Source: Labia minor (Eukaryota > Arthropoda > Insecta > Dermaptera > Spongiphoridae). From it: 64,000 nt of DNA. Both the position numbers and the translations under genes were made by a program. Position 1 is the first letter of the stretch. The number at the start of each line of letters is the position of its first letter. The stretch lies in assembly GCA_963082975.1 (NCBI GenBank), contig OY720346.1, positions 49,696,296 to 49,760,295 on the forward strand. The letters are read 5' to 3'. The notes below the pieces were generated by a model. The model was given only the letters and a program-made list of their open reading frames with translations, did no database searches and was not told where the DNA came from. Positions 1 to 64,000 of the stretch are shown here, one piece after another.

Positions 1-317
1 ATATCAAGCTTCTTTATAACAAGACAGAGGCTGCTTGCCTCAATCGAGGCAATTTCCGCATCTTGCCGATGGCGGCAACAATCCTCGCCCGTTACGAGAA
101 TTCCTCGATGACAAACTACATGGGCGCTCAAAGTGATGCTACCTATAAGATCTTAGAGGACTGCATCCTGAGATACTTGTCTTCTAGGAACGCCTTGGCT
201 CCAGTTGACATGATGCATTCTTCGTCTGCTCATTCAACACAGATAGAAAGTGAGGAGATATCAAGGAGCTTCATCATCTGGCGAGCAAGGATGAGGAGGA
301 CTCATTCTTCACGATGA
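1..317 (+). CDS. orfB, short form, 5' end outside window
   Basis: Only the last 105 codons are present. It has N92 and S159 of the short class and ends in the tail read out of frame from orfA sequence (ending RTHSSR). Confidence 0.55.
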   Translation, partial: IKLLYNKTEAACLNRGNFRILPMAATILARYENSSMTNYMGAQSDATYKILEDCILRYLSSRNALAPVDMMHSSSAHSTQIESEEISRSFIIWRARMRRTHSSR

Positions 318-490
318 GGGAGCAGCAATTGGTAGGCTTAGGAGTTTACTTCTTAATGACCGGGAAGAATTTACAAGCACAGGGTTACTCAGGGTGGATC
401 AATAATAGACTGAGAACATTTGCAGGAACCGCAGGTGTCATTCAGAGATCAGTGTGGGCTGAGAGGTCCTTCGCCCACAGACAGCAATGA
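314..490 (+). pseudogene. orfA tail fragment (58 codons)
   Basis: This is the 3' part of orfA, starting at the internal methionine before REQQLVGLG and ending in HRQQ inside the next orfB start. The orfA 5' part is missing because of the S deletion. Its ATG overlaps the stop of the preceding short orfB (ATGA), just as orfB overlaps orfA. Whether it is translated is unknown. Confidence 0.45.
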
Positions 491-1086
491 GTACCTTATA
501 TGCGGTTTTCTCCGCCAACTTCCATCTGCGGCGGAGTGTATTCGAAATGTTCTTGAGTGATTGTAACGCTCCTGGCCTAGTAGGAAGTTTCTTCCAGACC
601 ATTGTTCACCTGCTTGATGGAGTCGAAATGACACACTTATACAACATAGAGAATTACATAATGGGCAAGTATAAGGAAGTGTTCAAGATCCGGATTATCA
701 GAGATGAGATGCGGGCGTACAACAAGGCAATTGACTTCGTGTGCTCCAAAGACGCTAATGAGCATGGTTATATCAAGCTTCTTTATGACAAGACAGAGGC
801 TGCTTGCCTCAATCGAGGCAATTTCCGCATCTTGCCGATGGCGGCAACAATCCTCGCCCGTTACGAGAATTCCTCGATGACAAACTACATGGGCGCTCAA
901 AGTGATGCTACCTATAAGATCTTAGAGGACTGCATCCTGAGATACTTGTCTTCTAGGAACGCCTTGGCTCCAGTTGACATGATGCATTCTTCGTCTGCTC
1001 ATTCAACACAGATAGAAAGTGAGGAGATATCAAGGAGCTTCATCATCTGGCGAGCAAGGATGAGGAGGACTCATTCTTCACGATGA
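487..1086 (+). CDS. orfB, short form with 9 extra residues (199 aa)
   Basis: The start matches other copies, then NFHLRRSVFEM replaces DM at residues 11-12, adding nine residues. The body is consensus (E46, K79, D92, S121) with S159. The native C-terminus is replaced by the 12-residue tail read from orfA sequence. Function unrecognised. Confidence 0.55.
   Translation: MSTLYAVFSANFHLRRSVFEMFLSDCNAPGLVGSFFQTIVHLLDGVEMTHLYNIENYIMGKYKEVFKIRIIRDEMRAYNKAIDFVCSKDANEHGYIKLLYDKTEAACLNRGNFRILPMAATILARYENSSMTNYMGAQSDATYKILEDCILRYLSSRNALAPVDMMHSSSAHSTQIESEEISRSFIIWRARMRRTHSSR
510..536 (+). other. Inverted repeat at the 27-bp segment of orfB
   Basis: CTCCGCC (510-516) and GGCGGAG (530-536) form a perfect 7-bp inverted repeat around a 13-base loop. 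The right arm lies inside the 27-bp segment present only in the S+27 and broken orfB copies. Its presence next to an insertion/deletion polymorphism fits slippage over a hairpin. I cannot tell from the sequence which state is ancestral. Confidence 0.6.
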
Positions 1087-1259
1087 GGGAGCAGCAATTG
1101 GTAGGCTTAGGAGTTTACTTCTTAATGATCGGGAAGAATTTACAAGCACAGGGTTACTCAGGGTGGATCAATAATAGACTGAGAACATTTGCAGGAACCG
1201 CAGGTGTCATTCAGAGATCAGTGTGGGCTGAGAGGTCCTTCGCCCACAGACAGCAATGA
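1083..1259 (+). pseudogene. orfA tail fragment (58 codons)
   Basis: As at 314 but with I68 (MIGKNL) instead of T68. It ends in HRQQ at the next orfB start. Confidence 0.45.
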
Positions 1260-1888
1260 GTACCTTATATGCGGTTTTCTCCGCCGACATGTTCTTGAGT
1301 GATTGTAACGCTCCTGGCCTAGTAGGAAGTTTCTTCCAGACCATTGTTCACCTGCTTGATGGAGTCGAAATGACACACTTATACAACATAGAGAATTACA
1401 TAATGGGCAAGTATAAGGAAGTGTTCAAGAACCGGATTATCAGAGATGAGATGCGGGCGTACAACAAGGCAATTGACTTCGTGTGCTCCAAAGACGCTAA
1501 TGAGCATGGTTATATCAAGCTTCTTTATGACAAGACAGAGGCTGCTTGCCTCAATCGAGGCAATTTCCGCATCTTGCCGATGGCGGCAACAATCCTCGCC
1601 CGTTACGAGAATTCCTCGATGACAAACTACATGGGCGCTCAAAGTGATGCTACCTATAAGATCTTAGAGGACTGCATCCTGAGATACTTGTCTTCTAGGA
1701 ACGCCTTGGCTCCAGTTGACATGATGCATTTTTCGTCTGCTCATTCAACACAGATAGAAAGTGAGGAGATATCAAGGAGCTTCATCGTCTCGTGGAGAGA
1801 GAAGGACAGTATCAAGGAATCAGGATCAGGGAACATCGCCTTTCCAAACCCTATGATACAAGCTCAGAACTCTCAGGTCCCCTCTTAG
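1256..1888 (+). CDS. orfB, long form, N59/V178 variant (210 aa)
   Basis: Complete orfB with I59N and I178V, a combination shared only with the copies at 27787 and 52384. The spacer that follows has AATTAAGAG, which removes the ATTAAA motif. Confidence 0.6.
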   Translation: MSTLYAVFSADMFLSDCNAPGLVGSFFQTIVHLLDGVEMTHLYNIENYIMGKYKEVFKNRIIRDEMRAYNKAIDFVCSKDANEHGYIKLLYDKTEAACLNRGNFRILPMAATILARYENSSMTNYMGAQSDATYKILEDCILRYLSSRNALAPVDMMHFSSAHSTQIESEEISRSFIVSWREKDSIKESGSGNIAFPNPMIQAQNSQVPS

Positions 1889-2078
1889 GAGATAAGTAAA
1901 GTAGTGTTTTTTTAATTTGGGCGTCGGTTTTTAACTAAATTTAGGTACAGGTTTCCTACCTGAGTATTTGTATTTTTAACTTTTAACTTAGAATTAAGAG
2001 TAATAATTGTTTAATGTAATTATAAGAGCTTTCCTATAATACAAATAGATAGTGAACACTTTGAACATTTCTGGCTCT

Positions 2079-2255
2079 ATGAGCAAGTTCTCTGCTGCTC
2101 TTGCTGAGATCCAGTATAATATCGTCTTCCAAGACCTGACAAACGAGGAGACAGCTCAGCTCTTCCACTCTGAGCACTCAATAGAAAGTGAGGAGATATC
2201 AAGGAGCTTCATCATCTGGCGAGCAAGGATGAGGAGGACTCATTCTTCACGATGA
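2079..2255 (+). CDS. orfA, chimeric (58 aa)
   Basis: The first 34 residues are normal orfA up to HSEHS. The reading frame then enters a 37-bp tract copied from orfB and continues in the tail ending RARMRRTHSSR. The last 24 residues equal those of the short orfB. A separate orfA tail frame, 2252-2428, follows with an ATGA overlap and leads into the next orfB. The protein, if made, lacks two thirds of orfA. Confidence 0.45.
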   Translation: MSKFSAALAEIQYNIVFQDLTNEETAQLFHSEHSIESEEISRSFIIWRARMRRTHSSR

Positions 2256-5568: not shown

Positions 5569-5901
5569 ATGAGCAAGTTCTCTGCTGCTCTTGCTGAGAT
5601 CCAGTATAATATCGTCTTCCAAGACCTGACAAACGAGGAGACAGCTCTGCTCTTCCACTCTGAGCACTCAAGAAAATTCTGGGCGACCATGGCGAGCAAG
5701 GATGAGGAGGACACATTGTTTACGATGAGGGAGCAGCAATTGGTAGGCTTAGGAGTTTACTTCTTAATGATCGGGAAGAATTTACAAGCACAGGGTTACT
5801 CAGGGTGGATCAATAATAGACTGAGAACCTTTGCAGGAACCGCAGGTGTCTCTCAGAGATCAGTGTGGACTGAGAGGTCCTTCGCCACACAGACAACATG
5901 A
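5569..5901 (+). CDS. orfA, complete (110 aa), L27/T49 variant
   Basis: Complete orfA with Q27L, H33, T49, G60, K70, L85 and A89-G90. It always precedes a short orfB in this array (also 15965, 24822, 32100, 40175, 56697). Confidence 0.55.
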   Translation: MSKFSAALAEIQYNIVFQDLTNEETALLFHSEHSRKFWATMASKDEEDTLFTMREQQLVGLGVYFLMIGKNLQAQGYSGWINNRLRTFAGTAGVSQRSVWTERSFATQTT

Positions 5902-6470
5902 GTACCTTATATGCGGTTTTCTCCGCCGACATGTTCTTGAGTGATTGTAACGCTCCTGGCCTAGTAGGAAGTTTCTTGCAGACCATTGTTCACCTGCTTG
6001 ATGGAGTCGAAATGACACACTTATACAACATAGAGAATTACATAATGGGTAAGTATAAGGAAGTGTTCAAGATCCGGATTATCAGAGATGAGATGCGGGC
6101 GTACAACAAGGCAATTGACTTCGTGTGCTCCAAAGACGCTAATGAGCATGGTTATATCAAGCTTCTTTATAACAAGACAGAGGCTGCTTGCCTCAATCGA
6201 GGCAATTTCCGCATCTTGCCGATGGCGGCAACAATCCTCGCCCGTTACGAGAATTCCTCGATGACAAACTACATGGGCGCTCAAAGTGATGCTACCTATA
6301 AGATCTTAGAGGACTGCATCCTGAGATACTTGTCTTCTAGGAACGCCTTGGCTCCAGTTGACATGATGCATTCTTCGTCTGCTCATTCAACACAGATAGA
6401 AAGTGAGGAGATATCAAGGAGCTTCATCATCTGGCGAGCAAGGATGAGGAGGACTCATTCTTCACGATGA
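5898..6470 (+). CDS. orfB, short form (190 aa); reference entry
   Basis: The short class differs from consensus at F27L, D92N and F159S and ends after residue 178 in a 12-residue tail (WRARMRRTHSSR) encoded by orfA sequence in another frame. It lacks the native polar C-terminus (residues 179-210). GGTAAGT is present at codons 51-53. No spacer follows; the orfA tail fragment abuts directly. Confidence 0.55.
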   Translation: MSTLYAVFSADMFLSDCNAPGLVGSFLQTIVHLLDGVEMTHLYNIENYIMGKYKEVFKIRIIRDEMRAYNKAIDFVCSKDANEHGYIKLLYNKTEAACLNRGNFRILPMAATILARYENSSMTNYMGAQSDATYKILEDCILRYLSSRNALAPVDMMHSSSAHSTQIESEEISRSFIIWRARMRRTHSSR

Positions 6471-6639
6471 GGGAGCAGCAATTGGTAGGCTTAGGAGTTT
6501 ACTTCTTAATGACCGGGAAGAATTTACAAGCACAGGGTTACTCAGGGTGGATCAATAATAGACTGAGAACATTTGCAGGAACCGCAGGTGTCATTCAGAG
6601 ATCAGTGTGGGCTGAGAGGTCCTTCGCCCACAGACAGCA
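5898..6639 (+). repeat. Unit form S (742 bp), exemplar
   Basis: Measured against form L, this unit lacks 410 bp covering the last part of orfB, the whole spacer and the first part of orfA. The junction reads CATCT/GGCGAGC in every S unit, which argues for a single origin followed by amplification. There is no spacer, so an S unit has no promoter-like region of its own. Confidence 0.94.
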
Positions 6640-6643
6640 ATGA
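6467..6643 (+). pseudogene. orfA tail fragment (58 codons)
   Basis: S-type remnant with T68, L85, I95 and an HRQQ end, leading into an S+27 orfB. Confidence 0.45.
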
Positions 6644-7239
6644 GTACCTTATATGCGGTTTTCTCCGCCAACTTCCATCTGCGGCGGAGTGTATTCGAAA
6701 TGTTCTTGAGTGATTGTAACGCTCCTGGCCTAGTAGGAAGTTTCTTCCAGACCATTGTTCACCTGCTTGATGGAGTCGAAATGACACACTTATACAACAT
6801 AGAGAATTACATAATGGGCAAGTATAAGGAAGTGTTCAAGATCCGGATTATCAGAGATGAGATGCGGGCGTACAACAAGGCAATTGACTTCGTGTGCTCC
6901 AAAGACGCTAATGAGCATGGTTATATCAAGCTTCTTTATGACAAGACAGAGGCTGCTTGCCTCAATCGAGGCAATTTCCGCATCTTGCCGATGGCGGCAA
7001 CAATCCTCGCCCGTTACGAGAATTCCTCGATGACAAACTACATGGGCGCTCAAAGTGATGCTACCTATAAGATCTTAGAGGACTGCATCCTGAGATACTT
7101 GTCTTCTAGGAACGCCTTGGCTCCAGTTGACATGATGCATTCTTCGTCTGCTCATTCAACACAGATAGAAAGTGAGGAGATATCAAGGAGCTTCATCATC
7201 TGGCGAGCAAGGATGAGGAGGACTCATTCTTCACGATGA
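6640..7239 (+). CDS. orfB, short form with 9 extra residues (199 aa)
   Basis: Protein identical to the copy at 487. It follows a plain short unit and precedes the broken orfB, an order repeated at 33171 and 41246. Confidence 0.55.
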   Translation: MSTLYAVFSANFHLRRSVFEMFLSDCNAPGLVGSFFQTIVHLLDGVEMTHLYNIENYIMGKYKEVFKIRIIRDEMRAYNKAIDFVCSKDANEHGYIKLLYDKTEAACLNRGNFRILPMAATILARYENSSMTNYMGAQSDATYKILEDCILRYLSSRNALAPVDMMHSSSAHSTQIESEEISRSFIIWRARMRRTHSSR

Positions 7240-8069
7240 GGGAGCAGCAATTGGTAGGCTTAGGAGTTTACTTCTTAATGATCGGGAAGAATTTACAAGC
7301 ACAGGGTTACTCAGGGTGGATCAATAATAGACTGAGAACATTTGCAGGTACCGCAGGTGTCATTCAGAGATCAGTGTGGGCTGAGAGGTCCTTCGCCACA
7401 CAGACAACAATGAGTACCTTATATGCGGTTTTCTCCGCCAACTTCCATCTGCGGCGGAGTGTATTCGAAATGTTCTTGAGTGATTGTAACGCTCCTGGCC
7501 TAGTAGGAAGTTTCTTCCAGACCATTGTTCACCTGCTTGATGGAGTCGAAATGACACACTTATACAACATAGAGAATTACATAATGGGTAAGTATAAGGA
7601 AGTGTTCAAGATCCGGATTATCAGAGATGAGATGCGGGCGTACAACAAGGCAATTGACTTCGTGTGCTCCAAAGACGCTAATGAGCATGGTTATATCAAG
7701 ATTCTTTATGACAAGACAGAGACTGCTTGCCTCAATCGAGGCAATTTCCGCATCTTGCCGATGGCGGCAACAATCCTCGCCTGTTACGAGAATTCCTCGA
7801 TGACAAACTAGATGGGCGCTCAAAGTGATGCTACCTATAAGATCTAAGAGGACTGCATCCTGAGATACTTGTCTTCTAGGAACGCCTTGGCTCCAGTTGA
7901 CATGATGCATTTTTCGTCTGCTCATTCAACACAGATAGAAAGTAAGGAGATATCAAGGAGCTTCATCATCTCGTGGAGAGAGAAGGAAAGTATCAAGGAA
8001 TCAGGATCAGGGAACATCGCCTTTCCAAACCCTATGATACAAGCTCAGAACTCTCAGGTCCCCTCTTAG
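7236..8069 (+). pseudogene. orfA tail read in frame into a broken orfB
   Basis: The orfA tail and the following orfB (start about 7410, with the nine extra residues) lie in one open frame here, unlike the overlapping frames of other units. The orfB part is broken in at least two places. Its distal end, 7869-8069, resumes the native long C-terminus. I296-type marker changes (I for L near residue 89 of orfB, T96, C116) distinguish it. The same broken copy occurs at 33767 and 41842. Confidence 0.7.
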
Positions 8070-8259
8070 GATTTAAGTAAAGTAATGTTTTTTCAATTTG
8101 GGTGTCGGTTTTTAACTAAATTTAGGTACAGGTTTCCTACCTGAGTATTTGTATTTTTAACTTTTAACTTAGAATTAAAAGTAATAATTGTTTAATGTAT
8201 TTATAAGAGCTTTCCTATAATACAAATAGATAGTGAACACTTTGAACATTTCTGGCTCT

Positions 8260-8592
8260 ATGAGCAAGTTCTCTGCTGCTCTTGCTGAGATCCAGTATAA
8301 TATCGTCTTCCAAGACCTGACAAACGAGGAGACAGCTCAGCTCTTCCACTCTGAGCACTCAAGAAAATTCTGGGCGACCATGGCGAGCAAGGATGAGGAG
8401 GACTCATTCTTCACGATGAGGGAGCAGCAATTGGTAGGCTTAGGAGTTTATTTCTTAATGATCGGGAAGAATTTACAAGCACAGGGTTACTCAGGGTGGA
8501 TCAATAATAGACGGAGAACCTTTACACGAACCGCAGGTGTCTCTCAGAGATCAGTGTGGACTGAGAGGTCCTTCGCCACACAGACAACATGA
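8260..8592 (+). CDS. orfA, complete (110 aa), F50/G60/R85 variant
   Basis: Complete orfA with H33, S49-F50, G60, I68 and R85. The same allele follows each of the three broken orfB copies. Confidence 0.55.
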   Translation: MSKFSAALAEIQYNIVFQDLTNEETAQLFHSEHSRKFWATMASKDEEDSFFTMREQQLVGLGVYFLMIGKNLQAQGYSGWINNRRRTFTRTAGVSQRSVWTERSFATQTT

Positions 8593-9161: not shown

Positions 9162-9334
9162 GGGAGCAGCAATTGGTAGGCTTAGGAGTTTACTTCTTAA
9201 TGACCGGGAAGAATTTACAAGCACAGGGTTACTCAGGGTGGATCAATAATAGACTGAGAACATTTGCAGGAACCGCAGGTGTCATTCAGAGATCAGTGTG
9301 GGCTGAGAGGTCCTTCGCCCACAGACAGCAATGA
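9158..9334 (+). pseudogene. orfA tail fragment (58 codons)
   Basis: S-type remnant with T68 and an HRQQ end. Confidence 0.45.
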
Positions 9335-9963
9335 GTACCTTATATGCGGTTTTCTCCGCCGACATGTTCTTGAGTGATTGTAACGCTCCTGGCCTAGTAG
9401 GAAGTTTCTTCCAGACCATTGTTCACCTGCTTGATGGAGTCGAAATGACACACTTATACAACATAGAGAATTACATAATGGGCAAGTATAAGGAAGTGTT
9501 CAAGATCCGGATTATCAGAGATGAGATGCGGGCGTACAACAAGGCAATTGACTTCGTGTGCTCCAAAGACGCTAATGAGCATGGTTATATCAAGCTTCTT
9601 TATGACAAGACAGAGGCTGCTTGCCTCAATCGAGGCAATTTCCGCATCTTGCCGATGGCGGCAACAATCCTCGCCCGTTACGAGAATTCCTCGATGACAA
9701 ACTACATGGGCGCTCAAAGTGATGCTACCTATAAGATCTTAGAGGACTGCATCCTGAGATACTTGTCTTCTAGGAACGCCTTGGCTCCAGTTGACATGAT
9801 GCATTTTTCGTCTGCTCATTCAACACAGATAGAAAGTGAGGAGATATCAAGGAGCTTCATCATCTCGTGGAGAGAGAAGGACAGTATCAAGGAATCAGGA
9901 TCAGGGAACATCGCCTTTCCAAACCCTATGATACAAGCTCAGAACTCTCAGGTCCCCTCTTAG
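9331..9963 (+). CDS. orfB, long form, consensus (210 aa)
   Basis: Consensus residues at all marker positions. First unit of the 8,857-bp block. The alanine-195 codon is GCC, followed by the GGGCG spacer. Confidence 0.6.
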   Translation: MSTLYAVFSADMFLSDCNAPGLVGSFFQTIVHLLDGVEMTHLYNIENYIMGKYKEVFKIRIIRDEMRAYNKAIDFVCSKDANEHGYIKLLYDKTEAACLNRGNFRILPMAATILARYENSSMTNYMGAQSDATYKILEDCILRYLSSRNALAPVDMMHFSSAHSTQIESEEISRSFIISWREKDSIKESGSGNIAFPNPMIQAQNSQVPS

Positions 9964-10153
9964 GAGATAAGTAAAGTAGTGTTTTTTTAATTTGGGCGTC
10001 GGTTTTTAACTAAATTTAGGTACAGGTTTCCTACCTGAGTATTTGTATTTTTAACTTTTAACTTAGAATTAAAAGTAATAATTGTTTAATGTAATTATAA
10101 GAGCTTTCCTATAATACAAATAGATAGTGAACACTTTGAACATTTCTGGCTCT

Positions 10154-10330
10154 ATGAGCAAGTTCTCTGCTGCTCTTGCTGAGATCCAGTATAATATCGT
10201 CTTCCAAGACCTGACAAACGAGGAGACAGCTCAGCTCTTCCACTCTGAGCACTCAATAGAAAGTGAGGAGATATCAAGGAGCTTCATCATCTGGCGAGCA
10301 AGGATGAGGAGGACTCATTCTTCACGATGA
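10154..10330 (+). CDS. orfA, chimeric (58 aa)
   Basis: RARMRR tail variant. The separate orfA tail frame is 10327-10503 with R85 and T89-R90. Confidence 0.45.
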   Translation: MSKFSAALAEIQYNIVFQDLTNEETAQLFHSEHSIESEEISRSFIIWRARMRRTHSSR

Positions 10331-10499
10331 GGGAGCAGCAATTGGTAGGCTTAGGAGTTTACTTCTTAATGATCGGGAAGAATTTACAAGCACAGGGTTA
10401 CTCAGGGTGGATCAATAATAGACGGAGAACCTTTACACGAACCGCAGGTGTCTCTCAGAGATCAGTGTGGACTGAGAGGTCATTCGCCACACAGACAAC

Positions 10500-11132
10500 A
10501 TGAGTACCTTATATGCGGTTTTCTCCGCCGACATGTTCTTGAGTGATTGTAACGCTCCTGGCCTAGTAGGAAGTTTCTTCCAGACCATTGTTCACCTGCT
10601 TGATGGAGTCGAAATGACACACTTATACAACATAGAGAATTACATAATGGGCAAGTATAAGGAAGTGTTCAAGATCCGGATTATCAGAGATGAGATGCGG
10701 GCGTACAACAAGGCAATTGACTTCGTGTGCTCCAAAGACGCTAATGAGCATGGTTATATCAAGCTTCTTTATGACAAGACAGAGGCTGCTTGCCTCAATC
10801 GAGGCAATTTCCGCATCTTGCCGATGGCGGCAACAATCCTCGCCCGTTACGAGAATTCCTCGATGACAAACTACATGGGCGCTCAAAGTGATGCTACCTA
10901 TAAGATCTTAGAGGACTGCATCCTGAGATACTTGTCTTCTAGGAACGCCTTGGCTCCAGTTGACATGATGCATTTTTCGTCTGCTCATTCAACACAGATA
11001 GAAAGTGAGGAGATATCAAGGAGCTTCATCATCTCGTGGAGAGAGAAGGACAGTATCAAGGAATCAGGATCAGGGAACATCGCCTTTCCAAACCCTATGA
11101 TACAAGCTCAGAACTCTCAGGTCCCCTCTTAG
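10500..11132 (+). CDS. orfB, long form, consensus (210 aa)
   Basis: Consensus copy in a run of three consecutive L' units (10127, 11296, 12465). Confidence 0.6.
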   Translation: MSTLYAVFSADMFLSDCNAPGLVGSFFQTIVHLLDGVEMTHLYNIENYIMGKYKEVFKIRIIRDEMRAYNKAIDFVCSKDANEHGYIKLLYDKTEAACLNRGNFRILPMAATILARYENSSMTNYMGAQSDATYKILEDCILRYLSSRNALAPVDMMHFSSAHSTQIESEEISRSFIISWREKDSIKESGSGNIAFPNPMIQAQNSQVPS

Positions 11133-11322
11133 GAGATAAGTAAAGTAGTGTTTTTTTAATTTGGGCGTCGGTTTTTAACTAAATTTAGGTACAGGTTTCC
11201 TACCTGAGTATTTGTATTTTTAACTTTTAACTTAGAATTAAAAGTAATAATTGTTTAATGTAATTATAAGAGCTTTCCTATAATACAAATAGATAGTGAA
11301 CACTTTGAACATTTCTGGCTCT

Positions 11323-11499
11323 ATGAGCAAGTTCTCTGCTGCTCTTGCTGAGATCCAGTATAATATCGTCTTCCAAGACCTGACAAACGAGGAGACAGCT
11401 CAGCTCTTCCACTCTGAGCACTCAATAGAAAGTGAGGAGATATCAAGGAGCTTCATCATCTGGCGAGCAAGGATGAGGAGGACTCATTCTTCACGATGA
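11323..11499 (+). CDS. orfA, chimeric (58 aa)
   Basis: Protein identical to the copy at 10154. Tail frame 11496-11672. Confidence 0.45.
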   Translation: MSKFSAALAEIQYNIVFQDLTNEETAQLFHSEHSIESEEISRSFIIWRARMRRTHSSR

Positions 11500-11668
11500 G
11501 GGAGCAGCAATTGGTAGGCTTAGGAGTTTACTTCTTAATGATCGGGAAGAATTTACAAGCACAGGGTTACTCAGGGTGGATCAATAATAGACGGAGAACC
11601 TTTACACGAACCGCAGGTGTCTCTCAGAGATCAGTGTGGACTGAGAGGTCATTCGCCACACAGACAAC

Positions 11669-12301
11669 ATGAGTACCTTATATGCGGTTTTCTCCGCCGA
11701 CATGTTCTTGAGTGATTGTAACGCTCCTGGCCTAGTAGGAAGTTTCTTCCAGACCATTGTTCACCTGCTTGATGGAGTCGAAATGACACACTTATACAAC
11801 ATAGAGAATTACATAATGGGCAAGTATAAGGAAGTGTTCAAGATCCGGATTATCAGAGATGAGATGCGGGCGTACAACAAGGCAATTGACTTCGTGTGCT
11901 CCAAAGACGCTAATGAGCATGGTTATATCAAGCTTCTTTATGACAAGACAGAGGCTGCTTGCCTCAATCGAGGCAATTTCCGCATCTTGCCGATGGCGGC
12001 AACAATCCTCGCCCGTTACGAGAATTCCTCGATGACAAACTACATGGGCGCTCAAAGTGATGCTACCTATAAGATCTTAGAGGACTGCATCCTGAGATAC
12101 TTGTCTTCTAGGAACGCCTTGGCTCCAGTTGACATGATGCATTTTTCGTCTGCTCATTCAACACAGATAGAAAGTGAGGAGATATCAAGGAGCTTCATCA
12201 TCTCGTGGAGAGAGAAGGACAGTATCAAGGAATCAGGATCAGGGAACATCGCCTTTCCAAACCCTATGATACAAGCTCAGAACTCTCAGGTCCCCTCTTA
12301 G
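11669..12301 (+). CDS. orfB, long form, consensus (210 aa)
   Basis: Consensus copy. Followed by the T7/GGGCG spacer. Confidence 0.6.
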   Translation: MSTLYAVFSADMFLSDCNAPGLVGSFFQTIVHLLDGVEMTHLYNIENYIMGKYKEVFKIRIIRDEMRAYNKAIDFVCSKDANEHGYIKLLYDKTEAACLNRGNFRILPMAATILARYENSSMTNYMGAQSDATYKILEDCILRYLSSRNALAPVDMMHFSSAHSTQIESEEISRSFIISWREKDSIKESGSGNIAFPNPMIQAQNSQVPS

Positions 12302-12491
12302 GAGATAAGTAAAGTAGTGTTTTTTTAATTTGGGCGTCGGTTTTTAACTAAATTTAGGTACAGGTTTCCTACCTGAGTATTTGTATTTTTAACTTTTAAC
12401 TTAGAATTAAAAGTAATAATTGTTTAATGTAATTATAAGAGCTTTCCTATAATACAAATAGATAGTGAACACTTTGAACATTTCTGGCTCT

Positions 12492-12668
12492 ATGAGCAAG
12501 TTCTCTGCTGCTCTTGCTGAGATCCAGTATAATATCGTCTTCCAAGACCTGACAAACGAGGAGACAGCTCAGCTCTTCCACTCTGAGCACTCAATAGAAA
12601 GTGAGGAGATATCAAGGAGCTTCATCATCTGGCGAGCAAGGATGAGGAGGACTCATTCTTCACGATGA
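12492..12668 (+). CDS. orfA, chimeric (58 aa)
   Basis: RARMRR variant. Tail frame 12665-12841. Confidence 0.45.
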   Translation: MSKFSAALAEIQYNIVFQDLTNEETAQLFHSEHSIESEEISRSFIIWRARMRRTHSSR

Positions 12669-12837
12669 GGGAGCAGCAATTGGTAGGCTTAGGAGTTTAC
12701 TTCTTAATGATCGGGAAGAATTTACAAGCACAGGGTTACTCAGGGTGGATCAATAATAGACGGAGAACCTTTACACGAACCGCAGGTGTCTCTCAGAGAT
12801 CAGTGTGGACTGAGAGGTCATTCGCCACACAGACAAC

Positions 12838-13470
12838 ATGAGTACCTTATATGCGGTTTTCTCCGCCGACATGTTCTTGAGTGATTGTAACGCTCCTGGC
12901 CTAGTAGGAAGTTTCTTCCAGACCATTGTTCACCTGCTTGATGGAGTCGAAATGACACACTTATACAACATAGAGAATTACATAATGGGCAAGTATAAGG
13001 AAGTGTTCAAGATCCGGATTATCAGAGATGAGATGCGGGCGTACAACAAGGCAATTGACTTCGTGTGCTCCAAAGACGCTAATGAGCATGGTAATATCAA
13101 GCTTCTTTATGACAAGACAGAGGCTGCTTGCCTCAATCGAGGCAATTTCCGCATCTTGCCGATGGCGGCAACAATCCTCGCCCGTTACGAGAATTCCTCG
13201 ATGACAAACTACATGGGCGCTCAAAGTGATGCTACCTATAAGATCTTAGAGGACTGCATCCTGAGATACTTGTCTTCTAGGAACGCCTTGGCTCCAGTTG
13301 ACATGATGCATTTTTCGTCTGCTCATTCAACACAGATAGAAAGTGAGGAGATATCAAGGAGCTTCATCATCTCGTGGAGAGAGAAGGACAGTATCAAGGA
13401 ATCAGGATCAGGGAACATCGCATTTCCAAACCCTATGATACAAGCTCAGAACTCTCAGGTCCCCTCTTAG
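12838..13470 (+). CDS. orfB, long form, N86 variant (210 aa)
   Basis: Y86N, shared with 21695 and 47444 only. The alanine-195 codon is GCA and the spacer is the GGGTG type. Confidence 0.6.
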   Translation: MSTLYAVFSADMFLSDCNAPGLVGSFFQTIVHLLDGVEMTHLYNIENYIMGKYKEVFKIRIIRDEMRAYNKAIDFVCSKDANEHGNIKLLYDKTEAACLNRGNFRILPMAATILARYENSSMTNYMGAQSDATYKILEDCILRYLSSRNALAPVDMMHFSSAHSTQIESEEISRSFIISWREKDSIKESGSGNIAFPNPMIQAQNSQVPS

Positions 13471-13660
13471 GAGATAAGTAAAGTAGTGTTTTTTCAATTT
13501 GGGTGTCGGTTTTTAACTAAATTTAGGTACAGGTTTCCTACCTGAGTATTTGTATTTTTAACTTTTAACTTAGAATTAAAAATAATAATTGTTTAATGTA
13601 TTTATAAGAGCTTTCCTATAATACAAATAGATAGTGAACACTTTGAACATTTCTGGCTCT

Positions 13661-13993
13661 ATGAGCAAGTTCTCTGCTGCTCTTGCTGAGATCCAGTATA
13701 ATATCGTCTTCCAAGACCTGACAAACGAGGAGACAGCTCAGCTCTTCCACTCTGAGGACTCAAGAAAATTCTGGGCGACCATGGCGAGCAAGGATGAGGA
13801 GGACTCATTCTTCACGATGAGGGAGCAGCAATTGGTAGGCTTAGGAGTTTACTTCTTAATGACCGGGAAGAATTTACAAGCACAGGGTTACTCAGGGTGG
13901 ATCAATAATAGACTGAGAACATTTGCAGGAACCGCAGGTGTCATTCAGAGATCAGTGTGGGCTGAGAGGTCCTTCGCCCACAGACAGCAATGA
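13661..13993 (+). CDS. orfA, complete, with S-type tail (110 aa)
   Basis: The N-terminal half is the D33 type. From residue 50 onward it matches the S-unit tail (F50, G60, T68, L85, I95, A101, ending AHRQQ). This is a recombinant between a complete orfA and an S remnant that stays open throughout. Confidence 0.55.
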   Translation: MSKFSAALAEIQYNIVFQDLTNEETAQLFHSEDSRKFWATMASKDEEDSFFTMREQQLVGLGVYFLMTGKNLQAQGYSGWINNRLRTFAGTAGVIQRSVWAERSFAHRQQ

Positions 13994-14622
13994 GTACCTT
14001 ATATGCGGTTTTCTCCGCCGACATGTTCTTGAGTGATTGTAACGCTCCTGGCCTAGTAGGAAGTTTCTTCCAGACCATTGTTCACCTGCTTGATGGAGTC
14101 GAAATGACACACTTATACAACATAGAGAATTACATAATGGGCAAGTATAAGGAAGTGTTCAAGATCCGGATTATCAGAGATGAGATGCGGGCGTACAACA
14201 AGGCAATTGACTTCGTGTGCTCCAAAGACGCTAATGAGCATGGTTATATCAAGCTTCTTTATGACAAGACAGAGGCTGCTTGCCTCAATCGAGGCAATTT
14301 CCGCATCTTGCCGATGGCGGCAACAATCCTCGCCCGTTACGAGAATTCCTCGATGACAAACTACATGGGCGCTCAAAGTGATGCTACCTATAAGATCTTA
14401 GAGGACTGCATCCTGAGATACTTGTCTTCTAGGAACGCCTTGGCTCCAGTTGACATGATGCATTTTTCGTCTGCTCATTCAACACAGATAGAAAGTGAGG
14501 AGATATCAAGGAGCTTCATCATCTCGTGGAGAGAGAAGGACAGTATCAAGGAATCAGGATCAGGGAACATCGCATTTCCAAACCCTATGATACAAGCTCA
14601 GAACTCTCAGGTCCCCTCTTAG
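13990..14622 (+). CDS. orfB, long form, consensus protein (210 aa)
   Basis: Consensus protein with the silent GCA195 marker and GGGTG spacer, so the 3' part resembles the Q46/E79 class and the 5' part does not. Confidence 0.6.
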   Translation: MSTLYAVFSADMFLSDCNAPGLVGSFFQTIVHLLDGVEMTHLYNIENYIMGKYKEVFKIRIIRDEMRAYNKAIDFVCSKDANEHGYIKLLYDKTEAACLNRGNFRILPMAATILARYENSSMTNYMGAQSDATYKILEDCILRYLSSRNALAPVDMMHFSSAHSTQIESEEISRSFIISWREKDSIKESGSGNIAFPNPMIQAQNSQVPS

Positions 14623-14812
14623 GAGATAAGTAAAGTAGTGTTTTTTCAATTTGGGTGTCGGTTTTTAACTAAATTTAGGTACAGGTTTCCTACCTGAGTA
14701 TTTGTATTTTTAACTTTTAACTTAGAATTAAAAATAATAATTGTTTAATGTATTTATAAGAGCTTTCCTATAATACAAATAGATAGTGAACACTTTGAAC
14801 ATTTCTGGCTCT

Positions 14813-15145
14813 ATGAGCAAGTTCTCTGCTGCTCTTGCTGAGATCCAGTATAATATCGTCTTCCAAGACCTGACAAACGAGGAGACAGCTCAGCTCTTCC
14901 ACTCTGAGGACTCAAGAAAATTCTGGGCGACCATGGCGAGCAAGGATGAGGAGGACTCATTGTTTACGATGAGGGAGCAGCAATTGGTAGACTTAGGAGT
15001 TTACTTCTTAATGATCGGGAAGAATTTACAAGCACAGGGTTACTCAGGGTGGATCAATAATAGACGGAGAACCTTTACACGAACCGCAGGTGTCTCTCAG
15101 AGATCAGTGTGGACTGAGAGGTCATTCGCCACACAGACAACATGA
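14813..15145 (+). CDS. orfA, complete (110 aa), D33/D60/K70
   Basis: As the reference copy at 4417 but with K70, the commoner residue. Confidence 0.55.
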   Translation: MSKFSAALAEIQYNIVFQDLTNEETAQLFHSEDSRKFWATMASKDEEDSLFTMREQQLVDLGVYFLMIGKNLQAQGYSGWINNRRRTFTRTAGVSQRSVWTERSFATQTT

Positions 15146-15774
15146 GTACCTTATATGCGGTTTTCTCCGCCGACATGTTCTTGAGTGATTGTAACGCTCC
15201 TGGCCTAGTAGGAAGTTTCTTCCAGACCATTGTTCACCTGCTTGATGGAGTCGAAATGACACACTTATACAACATAGAGAATTACATAATGGGCAAGTAT
15301 AAGGAAGTGTTCAAGATCCGGATTATCAGAGATGAGATGCGGGCGTACAACAAGGCAATTGACTTCGTGTGCTCCAAAGACGCTAATGAGCATGGTTATA
15401 TCAAGCTTCTTTATGACAAGACAGAGGCTGCTTGCCTCAATCGAGGCAATTTCCGCATCTTGCCGATGGCGGCAACAATCCTCGCCCGTTACGAGAATTC
15501 CTCGATGACAAACTACATGGGCGCTCAAAGTGATGCTACCTATAAGATCTTAGAGGACTGCATCCTGAGATACTTGTCTTCTAGGAACGCCTTGGCTCCA
15601 GTTGACATGATGCATTTTTCGTCTGCTCATTCAACACAGATAGAAAGTGAGGAGATATCAAGGAGCTTCATCATCTCGTGGAGAGAGAAGGACAGTATCA
15701 AGAAATCAGGATCAGGGAACATCGCCTTTCCAAACCCTATGATACAAGCTCAGAACTCTCAGGTCCCCTCTTAG
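15142..15774 (+). CDS. orfB, long form, K188 variant (210 aa)
   Basis: Protein identical to the copy at 4746. Confidence 0.6.
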   Translation: MSTLYAVFSADMFLSDCNAPGLVGSFFQTIVHLLDGVEMTHLYNIENYIMGKYKEVFKIRIIRDEMRAYNKAIDFVCSKDANEHGYIKLLYDKTEAACLNRGNFRILPMAATILARYENSSMTNYMGAQSDATYKILEDCILRYLSSRNALAPVDMMHFSSAHSTQIESEEISRSFIISWREKDSIKKSGSGNIAFPNPMIQAQNSQVPS

Positions 15775-15964
15775 GAGATAAGTAAAGTAGTGTTTTTTCA
15801 ATTTGGGCGTCGGTTTTTAACTAAATTTAGGTACAGGTTTCCTACCTGAGTATTTGTATTTTTAACTTTTAACTTAGAATTAAAAGTAATAATTGTTTAA
15901 TGTAATTATAAGAGCTTTCCTATAATACAAATAGATAGTGAACACTTTGAACATTTCTGGCTCT

Positions 15965-16297
15965 ATGAGCAAGTTCTCTGCTGCTCTTGCTGAGATCCAG
16001 TATAATATCGTCTTCCAAGACCTGACAAACGAGGAGACAGCTCTGCTCTTCCACTCTGAGCACTCAAGAAAATTCTGGGCGACCATGGCGAGCAAGGATG
16101 AGGAGGACACATTGTTTACGATGAGGGAGCAGCAATTGGTAGGCTTAGGAGTTTACTTCTTAATGATCGGGAAGAATTTACAAGCACAGGGTTACTCAGG
16201 GTGGATCAATAATAGACTGAGAACCTTTGCAGGAACCGCAGGTGTCTCTCAGAGATCAGTGTGGACTGAGAGGTCCTTCGCCACACAGACAACATGA
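15965..16297 (+). CDS. orfA, complete (110 aa), L27/T49 variant
   Basis: Protein identical to the copy at 5569. Confidence 0.55.
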   Translation: MSKFSAALAEIQYNIVFQDLTNEETALLFHSEHSRKFWATMASKDEEDTLFTMREQQLVGLGVYFLMIGKNLQAQGYSGWINNRLRTFAGTAGVSQRSVWTERSFATQTT

Positions 16298-16866
16298 GTA
16301 CCTTATATGCGGTTTTCTCCGCCGACATGTTCTTGAGTGATTGTAACGCTCCTGGCCTAGTAGGAAGTTTCTTGCAGACCATTGTTCACCTGCTTGATGG
16401 AGTCGAAATGACACACTTATACAACATAGAGAATTACATAATGGGTAAGTATAAGGAAGTGTTCAAGATCCGGATTATCAGAGATGAGATGCGGGCGTAC
16501 AACAAGGCAATTGACTTCGTGTGCTCCAAAGACGCTAATGAGCATGGTTATATCAAGCTTCTTTATAACAAGACAGAGGCTGCTTGCCTCAATCGAGGCA
16601 ATTTCCGCATCTTGCCGATGGCGGCAACAATCCTCGCCCGTTACGAGAATTCCTCGATGACAAACTACATGGGCGCTCAAAGTGATGCTACCTATAAGAT
16701 CTTAGAGGACTGCATCCTGAGATACTTGTCTTCTAGGAACGCCTTGGCTCCAGTTGACATGATGCATTCTTCGTCTGCTCATTCAACACAGATAGAAAGT
16801 GAGGAGATATCAAGGAGCTTCATCATCTGGCGAGCAAGGATGAGGAGGACTCATTCTTCACGATGA
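16294..16866 (+). CDS. orfB, short form (190 aa)
   Basis: Protein identical to the copy at 5898, but followed by a long rather than an S+27 orfB. Confidence 0.55.
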   Translation: MSTLYAVFSADMFLSDCNAPGLVGSFLQTIVHLLDGVEMTHLYNIENYIMGKYKEVFKIRIIRDEMRAYNKAIDFVCSKDANEHGYIKLLYNKTEAACLNRGNFRILPMAATILARYENSSMTNYMGAQSDATYKILEDCILRYLSSRNALAPVDMMHSSSAHSTQIESEEISRSFIIWRARMRRTHSSR

Positions 16867-17039
16867 GGGAGCAGCAATTGGTAGGCTTAGGAGTTTACTT
16901 CTTAATGACCGGGAAGAATTTACAAGCACAGGGTTACTCAGGGTGGATCAATAATAGACTGAGAACATTTGCAGGAACCGCAGGTGTCATTCAGAGATCA
17001 GTGTGGGCTGAGAGGTCCTTCGCCCACAGACAGCAATGA
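16863..17039 (+). pseudogene. orfA tail fragment (58 codons)
   Basis: S-type remnant with T68 and an HRQQ end. Confidence 0.45.
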
Positions 17040-17668
17040 GTACCTTATATGCGGTTTTCTCCGCCGACATGTTCTTGAGTGATTGTAACGCTCCTGGCCT
17101 AGTAGGAAGTTTCTTCCAGACCATTGTTCACCTGCTTGATGGAGTCGAAATGACACACTTATACAACATAGAGAATTACATAATGGGCAAGTATAAGGAA
17201 GTGTTCAAGATCCGGATTATCAGAGATGAGATGCGGGCGTACAACAAGGCAATTGACTTCGTGTGCTCCAAAGACGCTAATGAGCATGGTTATATCAAGC
17301 TTCTTTATGACAAGACAGAGGCTGCTTGCCTCAATCGAGGCAATTTCCGCATCTTGCCGATGGCGGCAACAATCCTCGCCCGTTACGAGAATTCCTCGAT
17401 GACAAACTACATGGGCGCTCAAAGTGATGCTACCTATAAGATCTTAGAGGACTGCATCCTGAGATACTTGTCTTCTAGGAACGCCTTGGCTCCAGTTGAC
17501 ATGATGCATTTTTCGTCTGCTCATTCAACACAGATAGAAAGTGAGGAGATATCAAGGAGCTTCATCATCTCGTGGAGAGAGAAGGACAGTATCAAGGAAT
17601 CAGGATCAGGGAACATCGCATTTCCAAACCCTATGATACAAGCTCAGAACTCTCAGGTCCCCTCTTAG
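17036..17668 (+). CDS. orfB, long form, consensus protein (210 aa)
   Basis: Consensus protein with GCA195 and the GGGTG spacer. Confidence 0.6.
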   Translation: MSTLYAVFSADMFLSDCNAPGLVGSFFQTIVHLLDGVEMTHLYNIENYIMGKYKEVFKIRIIRDEMRAYNKAIDFVCSKDANEHGYIKLLYDKTEAACLNRGNFRILPMAATILARYENSSMTNYMGAQSDATYKILEDCILRYLSSRNALAPVDMMHFSSAHSTQIESEEISRSFIISWREKDSIKESGSGNIAFPNPMIQAQNSQVPS

Positions 17669-17858
17669 GAGATAAGTAAAGTAGTGTTTTTTCAATTTGG
17701 GTGTCGGTTTTTAACTAAATTTAGGTACAGGTTTCCTACCTGAGTATTTGTATTTTTAACTTTTAACTTAGAATTAAAAATAATAATTGTTTAATGTATT
17801 TATAAGAGCTTTCCTATAATACAAATAGATAGTGAACACTTTGAACATTTCTGGCTCT

Positions 17859-18191
17859 ATGAGCAAGTTCTCTGCTGCTCTTGCTGAGATCCAGTATAAT
17901 ATCGTCTTCCAAGACCTGACAAACGAGGAGACAGCTCAGCTCTTCCACTCTGAGGACTCAAGAAAATTCTGGGCGACCATGGCGAGCAAGGATGAGGAGG
18001 ACTCATTGTTTACGATGAGGGAGCAGCAATTGGTAGACTTAGGAGTTTACTTCTTAATGATCGGGAAGAATTTACAAGCACAGGGTTACTCAGGGTGGAT
18101 CAATAATAGACGGAGAACCTTTGCACGAATCGCAGGTGTCTCTCAGAGATCAGTGTGGACTGAGAGGTCATTCGCCACACAGACAACATGA
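17859..18191 (+). CDS. orfA, complete (110 aa), A89/I91 variant
   Basis: Carries T89A and T91I (FARIAG), shared with 26716 and 51313. Otherwise D33, D60, K70, R85. Confidence 0.55.
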   Translation: MSKFSAALAEIQYNIVFQDLTNEETAQLFHSEDSRKFWATMASKDEEDSLFTMREQQLVDLGVYFLMIGKNLQAQGYSGWINNRRRTFARIAGVSQRSVWTERSFATQTT

Positions 18192-18820
18192 GTACCTTAT
18201 ATGCGGTTTTCTCCGCCGACATGTTCTTGAGTGATTGTAACGCTCCTGGCCTAGTAGGAAGTTTCTTCCAGACCATTGTTCACCTGCTTGATGGAGTCGA
18301 AATGACACACTTATACAACATAGAGAATTACATAATGGGCAAGTATAAGGAAGTGTTCAAGATCCGGATTATCAGAGATGAGATGCGGGCGTACAACAAG
18401 GCAATTGACTTCGTGTGCTCCAAAGACGCTAATGAGCATGGTTATATCAAGCTTCTTTATGACAAGACAGAGGCTGCTTGCCTCAATCGAGGCAATTTCC
18501 GCATCTTGCCGATGGCGGCAACAATCCTCGCCCGTTACGAGAATTCCTCGATGACAAACTACATGGGCGCTCAAAGTGATGCTACCTATAAGATCTTAGA
18601 GGACTGCATCCTGAGATACTTGTCTTCTAGGAACGCCTTGGCTCCAGTTGACATGATGCATTTTTCGTCTGCTCATTCAACACAGATAGAAAGTGAGGAG
18701 ATATCAAGGAGCTTCATCATCTCGTGGAGAGAGAAGGACAGTATCAAGGAATCAGGATCAGGGAACATCGCCTTTCCAAACCCTATGATACAAGCTCAGA
18801 ACTCTCAGGTCCCCTCTTAG
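18188..18820 (+). CDS. orfB, long form, consensus (210 aa)
   Basis: First orfB of copy b of the 8,857-bp block, corresponding to 9331. Confidence 0.6.
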   Translation: MSTLYAVFSADMFLSDCNAPGLVGSFFQTIVHLLDGVEMTHLYNIENYIMGKYKEVFKIRIIRDEMRAYNKAIDFVCSKDANEHGYIKLLYDKTEAACLNRGNFRILPMAATILARYENSSMTNYMGAQSDATYKILEDCILRYLSSRNALAPVDMMHFSSAHSTQIESEEISRSFIISWREKDSIKESGSGNIAFPNPMIQAQNSQVPS

Positions 18821-19010
18821 GAGATAAGTAAAGTAGTGTTTTTTTAATTTGGGCGTCGGTTTTTAACTAAATTTAGGTACAGGTTTCCTACCTGAGTATT
18901 TGTATTTTTAACTTTTAACTTAGAATTAAAAGTAATAATTGTTTAATGTAATTATAAGAGCTTTCCTATAATACAAATAGATAGTGAACACTTTGAACAT
19001 TTCTGGCTCT

Positions 19011-19187
19011 ATGAGCAAGTTCTCTGCTGCTCTTGCTGAGATCCAGTATAATATCGTCTTCCAAGACCTGACAAACGAGGAGACAGCTCAGCTCTTCCAC
19101 TCTGAGCACTCAATAGAAAGTGAGGAGATATCAAGGAGCTTCATCATCTGGCGAGCAAGGATGAGGAGGACTCATTCTTCACGATGA
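19011..19187 (+). CDS. orfA, chimeric (58 aa)
   Basis: RARMRR variant. Tail frame 19184-19360. Confidence 0.45.
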   Translation: MSKFSAALAEIQYNIVFQDLTNEETAQLFHSEHSIESEEISRSFIIWRARMRRTHSSR

Positions 19188-19356
19188 GGGAGCAGCAATT
19201 GGTAGGCTTAGGAGTTTACTTCTTAATGATCGGGAAGAATTTACAAGCACAGGGTTACTCAGGGTGGATCAATAATAGACGGAGAACCTTTACACGAACC
19301 GCAGGTGTCTCTCAGAGATCAGTGTGGACTGAGAGGTCATTCGCCACACAGACAAC

Positions 19357-62632: not shown

Positions 62633-62822
62633 GAGATAAGTAAAGTAGTGTTTTTTCAATTTGGGTGTCGGTTTTTAACTAAATTTAGGTACAGGTTTCC
62701 TACCTGAGTATTTGTATTTTTAACTTTTAACTTAGAATTAAAAATAATAATTGTTTAATGTATTTATAAGAGCTTTCCTATAATACAAATAGATAGTGAA
62801 CACTTTGAACATTTCTGGCTCT

Positions 62823-62999
62823 ATGAGCAAGTTCTCTGCTGCTCTTGCTGAGATCCAGTATAATATCGTCTTCCAAGACCTGACAAACGAGGAGACAGCT
62901 CAGCTCTTCCACTCTGAGCACTCAATAGAAAGTGAGGAGATATCAAGGAGCTTCATCATCTGGCGAGCAAGGATGAGGAGGACTCATTCTTCACGATGA
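62823..62999 (+). CDS. orfA, chimeric (58 aa)
   Basis: RARMRR variant. Tail frame 62996-63172 combines L85 with T89-R90, a mixture not seen in the other tails. Confidence 0.45.
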   Translation: MSKFSAALAEIQYNIVFQDLTNEETAQLFHSEHSIESEEISRSFIIWRARMRRTHSSR

Positions 63000-63168
63000 G
63001 GGAGCAGCAATTGGTAGGCTTAGGAGTTTACTTCTTAATGATCGGGAAGAATTTACAAGCACAGGGTTACTCAGGGTGGATCAATAATAGACTGAGAACC
63101 TTTACACGAACCGCAGGTGTCTCTCAGAGATCAGTGTGGACTGAGAGGTCATTCGCCACACAGACAAC

Positions 63169-63801
63169 ATGAGTACCTTATATGCGGTTTTCTCCGCCGA
63201 CATGTTCTTGAGTGATTGTAACGCTCCTGGCCTAGTAGGAAGTTTCTTCCAGACCATTGTTCACCTGCTTGATGGAGTCGAAATGACACACTTATACAAC
63301 ATACAGAATTACATAATGGGTAAGTATAAGGAAGTGTTCAAGATCCGGATTATCAGAGATGAGATGCGGGCGTACAACAAGGCAATTGACTTCGTGTGCT
63401 CCGAAGACGCTAATGAGCATGGTTATATCAAGCTTCTTTATGACAAGACAGAGACTGCTTGCCTCAATCGAGGTAATTTCCGCATCTTGCCGATGGCGGC
63501 AACAATCCTCGCTCGTTACGAGAATTCCTTGATGACAAACTACATGGGCGCTCAAAGTGATGCTACCTATAAGATCTTAGAGGACTGCATCCTGAGATAC
63601 TTGTCTTCAAGGAACGCCTTGGCTCCAGTTGACATGATGCATTTTTCGTCTGCTCATTCAACACAGATAGAAAGTGAGGAGATATCAAGGAGCTTCATCA
63701 TCTCGTGGAGAGAGAAGGACAGTATCAAGGAATCAGGATCAGGGAACATCGCCTTTCCAAACCCTATGATACAAGCTCAGAACTCTCAGGTCCCCTCTTA
63801 G
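63169..63801 (+). CDS. orfB, long form, Q46/E79 class with GCC195 (210 aa)
   Basis: The protein is of the Q46/E79 class, but codon 195 is GCC, as in consensus copies, followed by the GGGTG spacer. This is a short conversion patch or a recombinant. Confidence 0.6.
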   Translation: MSTLYAVFSADMFLSDCNAPGLVGSFFQTIVHLLDGVEMTHLYNIQNYIMGKYKEVFKIRIIRDEMRAYNKAIDFVCSEDANEHGYIKLLYDKTETACLNRGNFRILPMAATILARYENSLMTNYMGAQSDATYKILEDCILRYLSSRNALAPVDMMHFSSAHSTQIESEEISRSFIISWREKDSIKESGSGNIAFPNPMIQAQNSQVPS

Positions 63802-63991
63802 GAGATAAGTAAAGTAGTGTTTTTTCAATTTGGGTGTCGGTTTTTAACTAAATTTAGGTACAGGTTTCCTACCTGAGTATTTGTATTTTTAACTTTTAAC
63901 TTAGAATTAAAAATAATAATTGTTTAATGTATTTATAAGAGCTTTCCTATAATACAAATAGATAGTGAACACTTTGAACATTTCTGGCTCT

Positions 63992-64000
63992 ATGAGCAAG
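63992..64000 (+). CDS. orfA start, cut by window end
   Basis: Only the ATG and two further codons are present. The array continues beyond the window. Confidence 0.5.

What the first reader, a model, noticed from the sequence alone, without database searches (positions are those of the whole stretch)
1..64000. A 64-kb gene array with no single-copy sequence
All of the window is one family of units, with 62 orfB copies. A protein-coding tandem array of this density, with neither end in view, implies selection for dosage, a structural or satellite-like role, or a runaway amplification.
Basis: partly seen in the sequence, partly recalled or inferred. Interest (0 to 1): 0.7.

Follow-up and report, generated by a model that had tools for sequence, protein, structure and literature searches.

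The report
Satellite-like array of decaying gene copies
All 64,000 bases are near-identical head-to-tail copies of one short former gene, multiplied in blocks like satellite DNA and changing without detectable selection on the protein, so it looks like runaway copying of a gene of unknown origin rather than a dosage-selected gene array.

Summary
Units fall into six length classes arranged in higher-order blocks of about eight units.

"Protein-coding gene array" needs correcting. 41 of 61 orfB copies keep the 210-aa form; 17 have a chimeric end and 3 stop early. Differences between copies show no purifying selection: 12 of 53 coding changes are synonymous, omega 0.99 (0.51-2.08). The open frames fit youth and homogenisation.

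Best reading: a gene-derived macrosatellite in an unidentified, probably eukaryotic genome, formed by illegitimate joins (J1, J2) and spread by unequal exchange or block duplication. Dosage selection is not supported. Assembly error could not be tested.

The founder gene is unidentified: no accepted match in Pfam, NCBIfam, PHROGs, PDB, IMG/VR, GTDB, phages or plasmids; structure models were too poor to use. A negative-strand RNA virus nucleoprotein origin is my hunch, from memory alone.

The parts
1..64000 (+). whole window: one same-strand tandem array, both ends open
   Evidence: no single-copy run; 61 orfB starts
1..317 (+). orfB fragment cut by the left edge (the 62nd copy), with the chimeric J1 end
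13990..15141 (+). example of class B unit (1152 bp; 20 copies): orfB, spacer, full orfA
13990..14622 (+). example orfB, 210-aa form (41 of 61)
14623..14812 (+). spacer between orfB stop and orfA ATG (190 bp); a weak spliced-leader-like string lies just before the ATG
14813..15145 (+). example full orfA (110 aa from its ATG); its stop overlaps the next orfB start (ATGA)
9331..10499 (+). example of class A unit (1169 bp; 20 copies): orfA interrupted by a piece of orfB (joins J2 and J1)
5898..6639 (+). example of class C unit (742 bp; 13 copies): 410 bp shorter than class B, join J1 fusing the orfB 3' part to mid-orfA
6640..7409 (+). class D unit (770 bp; 3 identical copies): join J1 plus the extra 27 bp in orfB
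7410..8588 (+). class E unit (1179 bp; 3 identical copies): extra 27 bp and two stop codons in orfB
7236..7811 (+). the D-to-E junction as it stands: orfA 3' part and orfB 5' part open in one frame (191 aa); 58 of 61 junctions are out of frame
487..1255 (+). class d unit (769 bp, single copy)
9331..18267 (+). higher-order block, first copy of the longest exact repeat (8,937 bp)
18188..27124 (+). higher-order block, second copy (lag 8,857 bp, 8 units)
28939..35142 (+). exact 6,204-bp repeat, first copy (lag 8,075 bp, 8 units)
37014..43217 (+). exact 6,204-bp repeat, second copy

Best explanation
The window lies inside a gene-derived macrosatellite (satellite-like array). SHOWN: units of about 1.15 kb carry two consecutive reading-frame pieces (orfA, orfB) and a 190-bp spacer. 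Two further joins (J1, J2) define the other main unit classes: J1 in classes C, D, d and A, J2 in class A. Units are internally recombined and recur in blocks of about eight units. Differences between copies carry no detectable sign of selection on either reading frame. INFERRED: the array grew by unequal crossing-over or block duplication and is kept alike by recent turnover; class B is nearest the founder layout; the frame was once a single open gene (it is still open at the D-to-E junction) and is now decaying, and most copies look intact only because they are recent copies of few ancestors. Whether class C or class A came first is undecided. The host is probably a eukaryote. The origin of the founder gene is unknown.
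For: Whole window repeated, one strand, 61 starts. Six length classes with consensus alignment. 25 distinct haplotypes among 60 full units. Exact repeats up to 8,937 bp. Mean divergence 0.0109 at lag 8 units against 0.018-0.020 at lags 1-6. Repeated unit words and runs beyond 2000 shuffles; four-gamete conflicts at 258 of 820 pairs of 41 sites, at least 7 recombination events (replaced block and single-haplotype variants left out). orfB changes 6 synonymous, 22 replacement, 2 stop of 30; orfA 6, 17, 0 of 23; variable sites spacer 9/190, orfB 30/633, orfA 23/305. Pooled omega 0.99 (0.51-2.08), omega 0.3 at P 6e-5. Restricted to classes with unbroken frames: 9 of 38 synonymous, omega 0.94 (0.43-2.25). 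Stops are 2 of 53 changes, where neutrality expects 4.0% (orfB) and 5.4% (orfA). Former coding nature: longest stop-free frame 218 codons, reached by none of 1000 dinucleotide shuffles, maximum 183.
Against: The selection test rests on 53 changes treated as independent; omega 0.5 is rejected only at P 0.02, and selection on a few copies could hide. Within class B alone orfB has 5 synonymous of 13 changes (orfA 3 of 19), and the orfB changes marking the B1/A5/B9 group are 3 synonymous of 7 (5 of 9 if more widely shared sites are counted; read off): a possible trace of older constraint. No flanks, reads or host genome were available, so real amplification cannot be separated from assembly error. 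The 41 intact 210-aa orfB copies could still be expressed. Divergence at lag 33 equals that at lag 8 (0.0109), and only 15 lags were printed.
Confidence: 0.78

Rival explanations
1. Dosage-selected tandem gene array, as for highly expressed dinoflagellate genes: each unit is a working gene, copies are kept for expression, and short spacers carry processing signals.
For: Same-strand units with a short spacer (190 bp), as described for such arrays (PMC2488372 and PMC7245778, passages). 41 of 61 orfB copies intact. A 12-column match with one gap to the dinoflagellate spliced leader just before the orfA ATG (P 0.016 in the whole spacer, 0.005 in the last 43 bases; post hoc).
Against: [quoted passage not shown] 20 of 61 orfB copies chimeric or stopped, orfA cut short in 20 of 43 starts. 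The AAAAG/C polyadenylation motif reported there is absent from the one class B spacer tested, though the class A and E consensus spacers contain AAAAG. The leader match was tested after the fact.
Confidence: 0.1
2. Assembly artefact: a short array expanded or scrambled by the assembler.
For: Exact repeats of 8.9 and 6.2 kb are at a scale where assemblers can err (general knowledge).
Against: The order of the 25 haplotypes is not a simple loop: blocks recur with single-unit and single-base differences. This is an argument, not a test.
Confidence: 0.08
3. Selfish or silencing gene array like Drosophila Stellate: copies spread because the product or its small RNAs act in the germline.
For: A tandem array of a short gene-derived unit with tens of copies; Stellate alleles hold 15-50 or 150-400 copies and the repeats are held to descend from an amplified gene (PMC7874207, passages).
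Against: No CK2-type family was reported by Pfam for six window ORFs. No opposite-strand copies that could form hairpins in the window. No linkage or expression data.
Confidence: 0.12

Closest known systems
Large human tandem arrays, macrosatellites and gene-bearing arrays (PMC2588610, passages seen)
   Same: Large head-to-tail arrays; the paper counts 20 arrays with one gene per unit and 53 of 96 arrays with units over 2 kb that hold genes or exons; its retroelement-made arrays form higher-order repeats of six monomers, with unequal crossing-over proposed.
   Different: The 96 arrays have units over 2 kb; here units are 0.74-1.18 kb, the source gene is unidentified, and the frames look unconstrained.
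Stellate / Su(Ste) repeats of Drosophila melanogaster (PMC7874207, passages seen)
   Same: Short gene-derived unit amplified to tens or hundreds of copies.
   Different: Stellate resembles CK2-beta and is silenced by piRNAs; no CK2 family was reported here and there are no silencing data.
Dinoflagellate tandem gene arrays (PMC2488372 and PMC7245778, passages seen; review PMC11453091, passages)
   Same: Same-strand genes with short spacers; pseudogene copies occur (10 of 46 actin sequences).
   Different: Those arrays hold mostly highly expressed genes and the actin clusters differ by synonymous changes; here there is no synonymous excess.
Endogenous bornavirus-like nucleoprotein elements of afrotherians (PMC4982594, passages seen)
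   Same: Only a conceptual parallel: a captured nucleoprotein gene duplicated in tandem.
   Different: Two tandem copies in elephant and manatee, not an array; and no similarity to a viral nucleoprotein was found here.

Membership tests
Macrosatellite / satellite-like array | Head-to-tail near-identical units over tens of kb | tested here: met
   61 starts on one strand, no single-copy run; mean within-class pairwise divergence 0-1.2%
Macrosatellite / satellite-like array | Higher-order repeat structure and exchange between units | tested here: met
   exact block repeats, low divergence at lag 8, mosaic haplotypes
Macrosatellite / satellite-like array | Copy number varies between individuals; defined chromosomal place | not testable with these tools
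   no reads and no host genome
Dosage-selected tandem gene array | Purifying selection: excess of synonymous differences between copies | tested here: not met
   omega 0.99 (0.51-2.08) and 0.94 (0.43-2.25); weak constraint (omega about 0.5 or more) is not excluded
Dosage-selected tandem gene array | Copies transcribed and translated | not testable with these tools
   no expression data
Dinoflagellate tandem gene array | Relict spliced leader and AAAAG/C polyadenylation motif in the spacer | tested here: inconclusive
   leader-like match P 0.016, post hoc; motif absent in the one class B spacer tested; AAAAG present in the class A and E consensus
Endogenous negative-strand RNA virus nucleoprotein | Sequence similarity to a viral nucleoprotein family | tested here: inconclusive
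   Searches (Pfam, six ORFs; PDB sequences, four ORFs): none reported; a divergent member could be missed
Endogenous negative-strand RNA virus nucleoprotein | Nucleoprotein fold | tested here: inconclusive
   single-sequence models with mean pLDDT 45 and 34; fold searches are uninformative
Stellate-like gene | CK2-beta homology | tested here: inconclusive
   Pfam scans of six ORFs reported no CK2 regulatory subunit

The most novel reading that the evidence does not exclude
The founder gene is a captured nucleoprotein gene of a negative-strand RNA virus, so the array is a higher-order satellite built from an endogenous non-retroviral RNA-virus gene. The orfA/orfB split would then be a frameshifted single viral frame, still open at the D-to-E junction. 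This rests on a recalled resemblance and on low-confidence, all-helical models, not on any significant match.
Probability: 0.25. Interest if true: 0.6.

Novelty: new member of a known kind. Interest (0 to 1): 0.38.

Why it matters
It shows how a 64-kb stretch full of intact-looking reading frames can be satellite DNA rather than a gene family: counting open frames in a young, homogenised array overstates its coding content. The preserved unit classes record steps of array birth (illegitimate joins, chimeric units, block duplication). If the founder gene proves to be viral, it would be a route from virus capture to satellite DNA.

Tried and rejected
Homology of the proteins. Pfam-A (six distinct window ORFs over the two calls, not all 61 copies): best DUF1397, E 0.019-0.038, 13.8-14.8 bits against a cut-off of 25.7, in the three orfB forms and not in the fused ORF or orfA; treated as chance. 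NCBIfam (four ORFs): best E 0.015, 15.6 bits against a cut-off of 190. PHROGs (four ORFs): best E 0.083. PDB sequences: best E 0.42. IMG/VR by protein (1, 11 and 2 pattern matches, none confirmed) and by one DNA string: nothing. GTDB genomes by protein (7 pattern matches, none confirmed) and by one DNA string: nothing. Phages and plasmids: no match.

Rfam at gathering score: 0 matches. tRNA/tmRNA: 0. Tandem Repeats Finder gave 0 rows; its longest period is 500.

Literature. Searches. Only listings were seen, except for the passages cited from six papers. No listed title or abstract start described a nucleoprotein-derived satellite array; I make no claim that such a thing is absent from print.

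Considered and dropped. Hairpin-RNA source: no inverted copies. Bacterial or phage origin: nothing in the prokaryote, phage and plasmid collections as searched above. Two coupled genes through the ATGA overlap: cannot be excluded, but made less likely by the in-frame D-to-E junction and by two different frame-breaking forms at the other junctions (41 B-type, 17 C-type, 3 D-type of 61). A fixed order B then C then A for the unit classes, which I had first drawn: dropped, because class A also holds two copies of the same orfB piece 427 bp apart, so class C could equally have come from class A by recombination between them.
Full report
1. The observation. Every part of the window belongs to one repeat family. 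No run of 20 or more positions carries single-occurrence 15-mers, the median 15-mer occurs 50 times, and none is shared with the opposite strand. The array runs off both ends of the window. Tandem Repeats Finder saw nothing because its longest period was 500.

2. Units. Spacings between starts fall into six classes: A 1169 bp x20, B 1152 x20, C 742 x13, D 770 x3, E 1179 x3, d 769 x1. The order is d AABBCDEC AAABBBCB AAABBBCBC AABBCDEC AABBCDEC AAABBCBC AABBC ACABA (string; grouping by me). Among 60 full units there are 25 distinct haplotypes. Mean within-class pairwise divergence is 0-1.2%; the most different pair of haplotypes differs by 3.9% on shared columns.

3. Anatomy. A class B unit holds orfB (210 aa), a 190-bp spacer and orfA (110 aa from its ATG), whose stop overlaps the next orfB start as ATGA. 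The D-to-E junction keeps orfA and orfB in one frame (7236-7811). Of 61 junctions 41 have the B-type break, 17 the C-type and 3 the open D-type. Classes d, D and E carry an extra 27 bp in orfB that A, B and C lack (7 against 54 of 61 starts). Class E orfB has two stop codons.

4. How the classes arose (inferred from the joins). Class C is 410 bp shorter than class B and joins the end of orfB to mid-orfA (J1). Class A carries J1 plus a second join J2, where orfA runs into a piece of orfB; the J2 string occurs 20 times and there are 20 A units. The J1 string occurs 31 times exactly; 37 units plus the left fragment should carry it, and the shortfall of 7 matches the 7 A copies with a base change inside the probe. 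Neither join shows long homology at the break (sequence contexts), so end-joining or template switching is likely. Two orders fit: B to C by deletion, then a C-B join making A; or B to A by a copied insert, then A to C by recombination between the two orfB pieces 427 bp apart. I cannot choose between them.

5. How the array grew. Exact repeats reach 8,937 bp (lag 8,857) and 6,204 bp (lag 8,075). Mean divergence between units is 0.018-0.020 at lags 1-6 and falls to 0.0109 at lag 8; lag 33 is equally low, of the 15 lags printed. This is the mark of higher-order repeats. Repeated 4-unit words number 18 against at most 4 in 2000 shuffles; the longest repeated run is 8 units against 5. Haplotypes are mosaics: 258 of 820 pairs of 41 sites fail the four-gamete test and at least 7 recombination events are needed. 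This fits unequal crossing-over and block duplication.

6. Is it a working gene family? The frame was once coding: the longest stop-free frame is 218 codons, and none of 1000 dinucleotide shuffles reaches that (maximum 183). But differences between copies look unconstrained. In orfB, 6 changes are synonymous, 22 replacement and 2 stop; in orfA 6, 17 and 0, leaving out the block replaced in class A. Pooled, 12 of 53 are synonymous where 11.9 are expected without selection: omega 0.99 (0.51-2.08); omega 0.3 has P 6e-5 and omega 0.5 P 0.02. Using only classes whose reading frames are unbroken (A and B for orfB, B and E for orfA), 9 of 38 are synonymous, omega 0.94 (0.43-2.25). The spacer varies as much as orfB (9/190 and 30/633) and orfA varies more (23/305). 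Against this: the sample is small; in class B alone orfB has 5 synonymous of 13 (orfA 3 of 19); and the orfB changes marking the B1/A5/B9 group are 3 of 7 synonymous, or 5 of 9 with more widely shared sites (read off), perhaps a trace of older constraint. 41 of 61 orfB copies keep 210 aa, 17 end in a chimeric tail and 3 stop at 133 aa; orfA is full in 23 of 43 starts.

7. What the founder gene was. Unknown. Searches of Pfam, NCBIfam, PHROGs, PDB sequences, IMG/VR, GTDB genomes, phages and plasmids gave nothing acceptable. The two structure models were too poor to use (mean pLDDT 45 and 34) and their fold searches were uninformative. The text of orfB reminded me of nucleoproteins of negative-strand RNA viruses; this is recollection, not a result. 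A 12-column match with one gap to the dinoflagellate spliced leader lies just before the orfA start (P 0.016, post hoc). No genome is held for the window and the proteins have no match in the prokaryote, phage and plasmid collections searched, so a eukaryote is likely (inference).

8. Comparison with what is known. Large human tandem arrays with a gene per unit, and arrays with higher-order repeats and proposed unequal crossing-over, are described (PMC2588610, passages). Stellate is an amplified short gene-derived repeat (PMC7874207, passages). Dinoflagellate gene arrays share the layout, but the actin clusters differ by synonymous changes (PMC2488372, passages; PMC7245778, passages; review PMC11453091, passages). 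Endogenous bornavirus-like nucleoprotein genes are known as two tandem copies in elephant and manatee (PMC4982594, passages). This array works like a macrosatellite and meets the features of one that can be tested here; it fails the constraint test for a dosage-selected gene array, within the limits given above.

9. Verdict. Real pattern in the sequence as given, correctly counted; interpretation partly right. A gene-derived satellite-like array, new member of a known kind, with an unidentified founder gene.

Noticed in passing
window 487-600 and the other d, D and E units: The extra 27 bp in orfB contains one arm of a short inverted repeat (CTCCGCC / GGCGGAG, seen in the context printed); its absence in A, B and C may be a hairpin-linked deletion.
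   Followed up: partly
window 14800-14811 and the same place in other spacers: String CATTTCTGGCTC just before the orfA ATG resembles part of the dinoflagellate spliced leader with one inserted base.
   Followed up: partly
orfB residues about 63-168: Sub-threshold Pfam hit to DUF1397 (E 0.019-0.038) in the three orfB forms scanned.
   Followed up: no
window 7236-7811 and the other two D-E pairs: The only three junctions where orfA and orfB are in one frame lead into the E copies, whose orfB carries two stop codons.
   Followed up: partly
whole window: CpG is moderately depleted (observed/expected 0.64), with CA at 1.22 and TG at 0.98.
   Followed up: no
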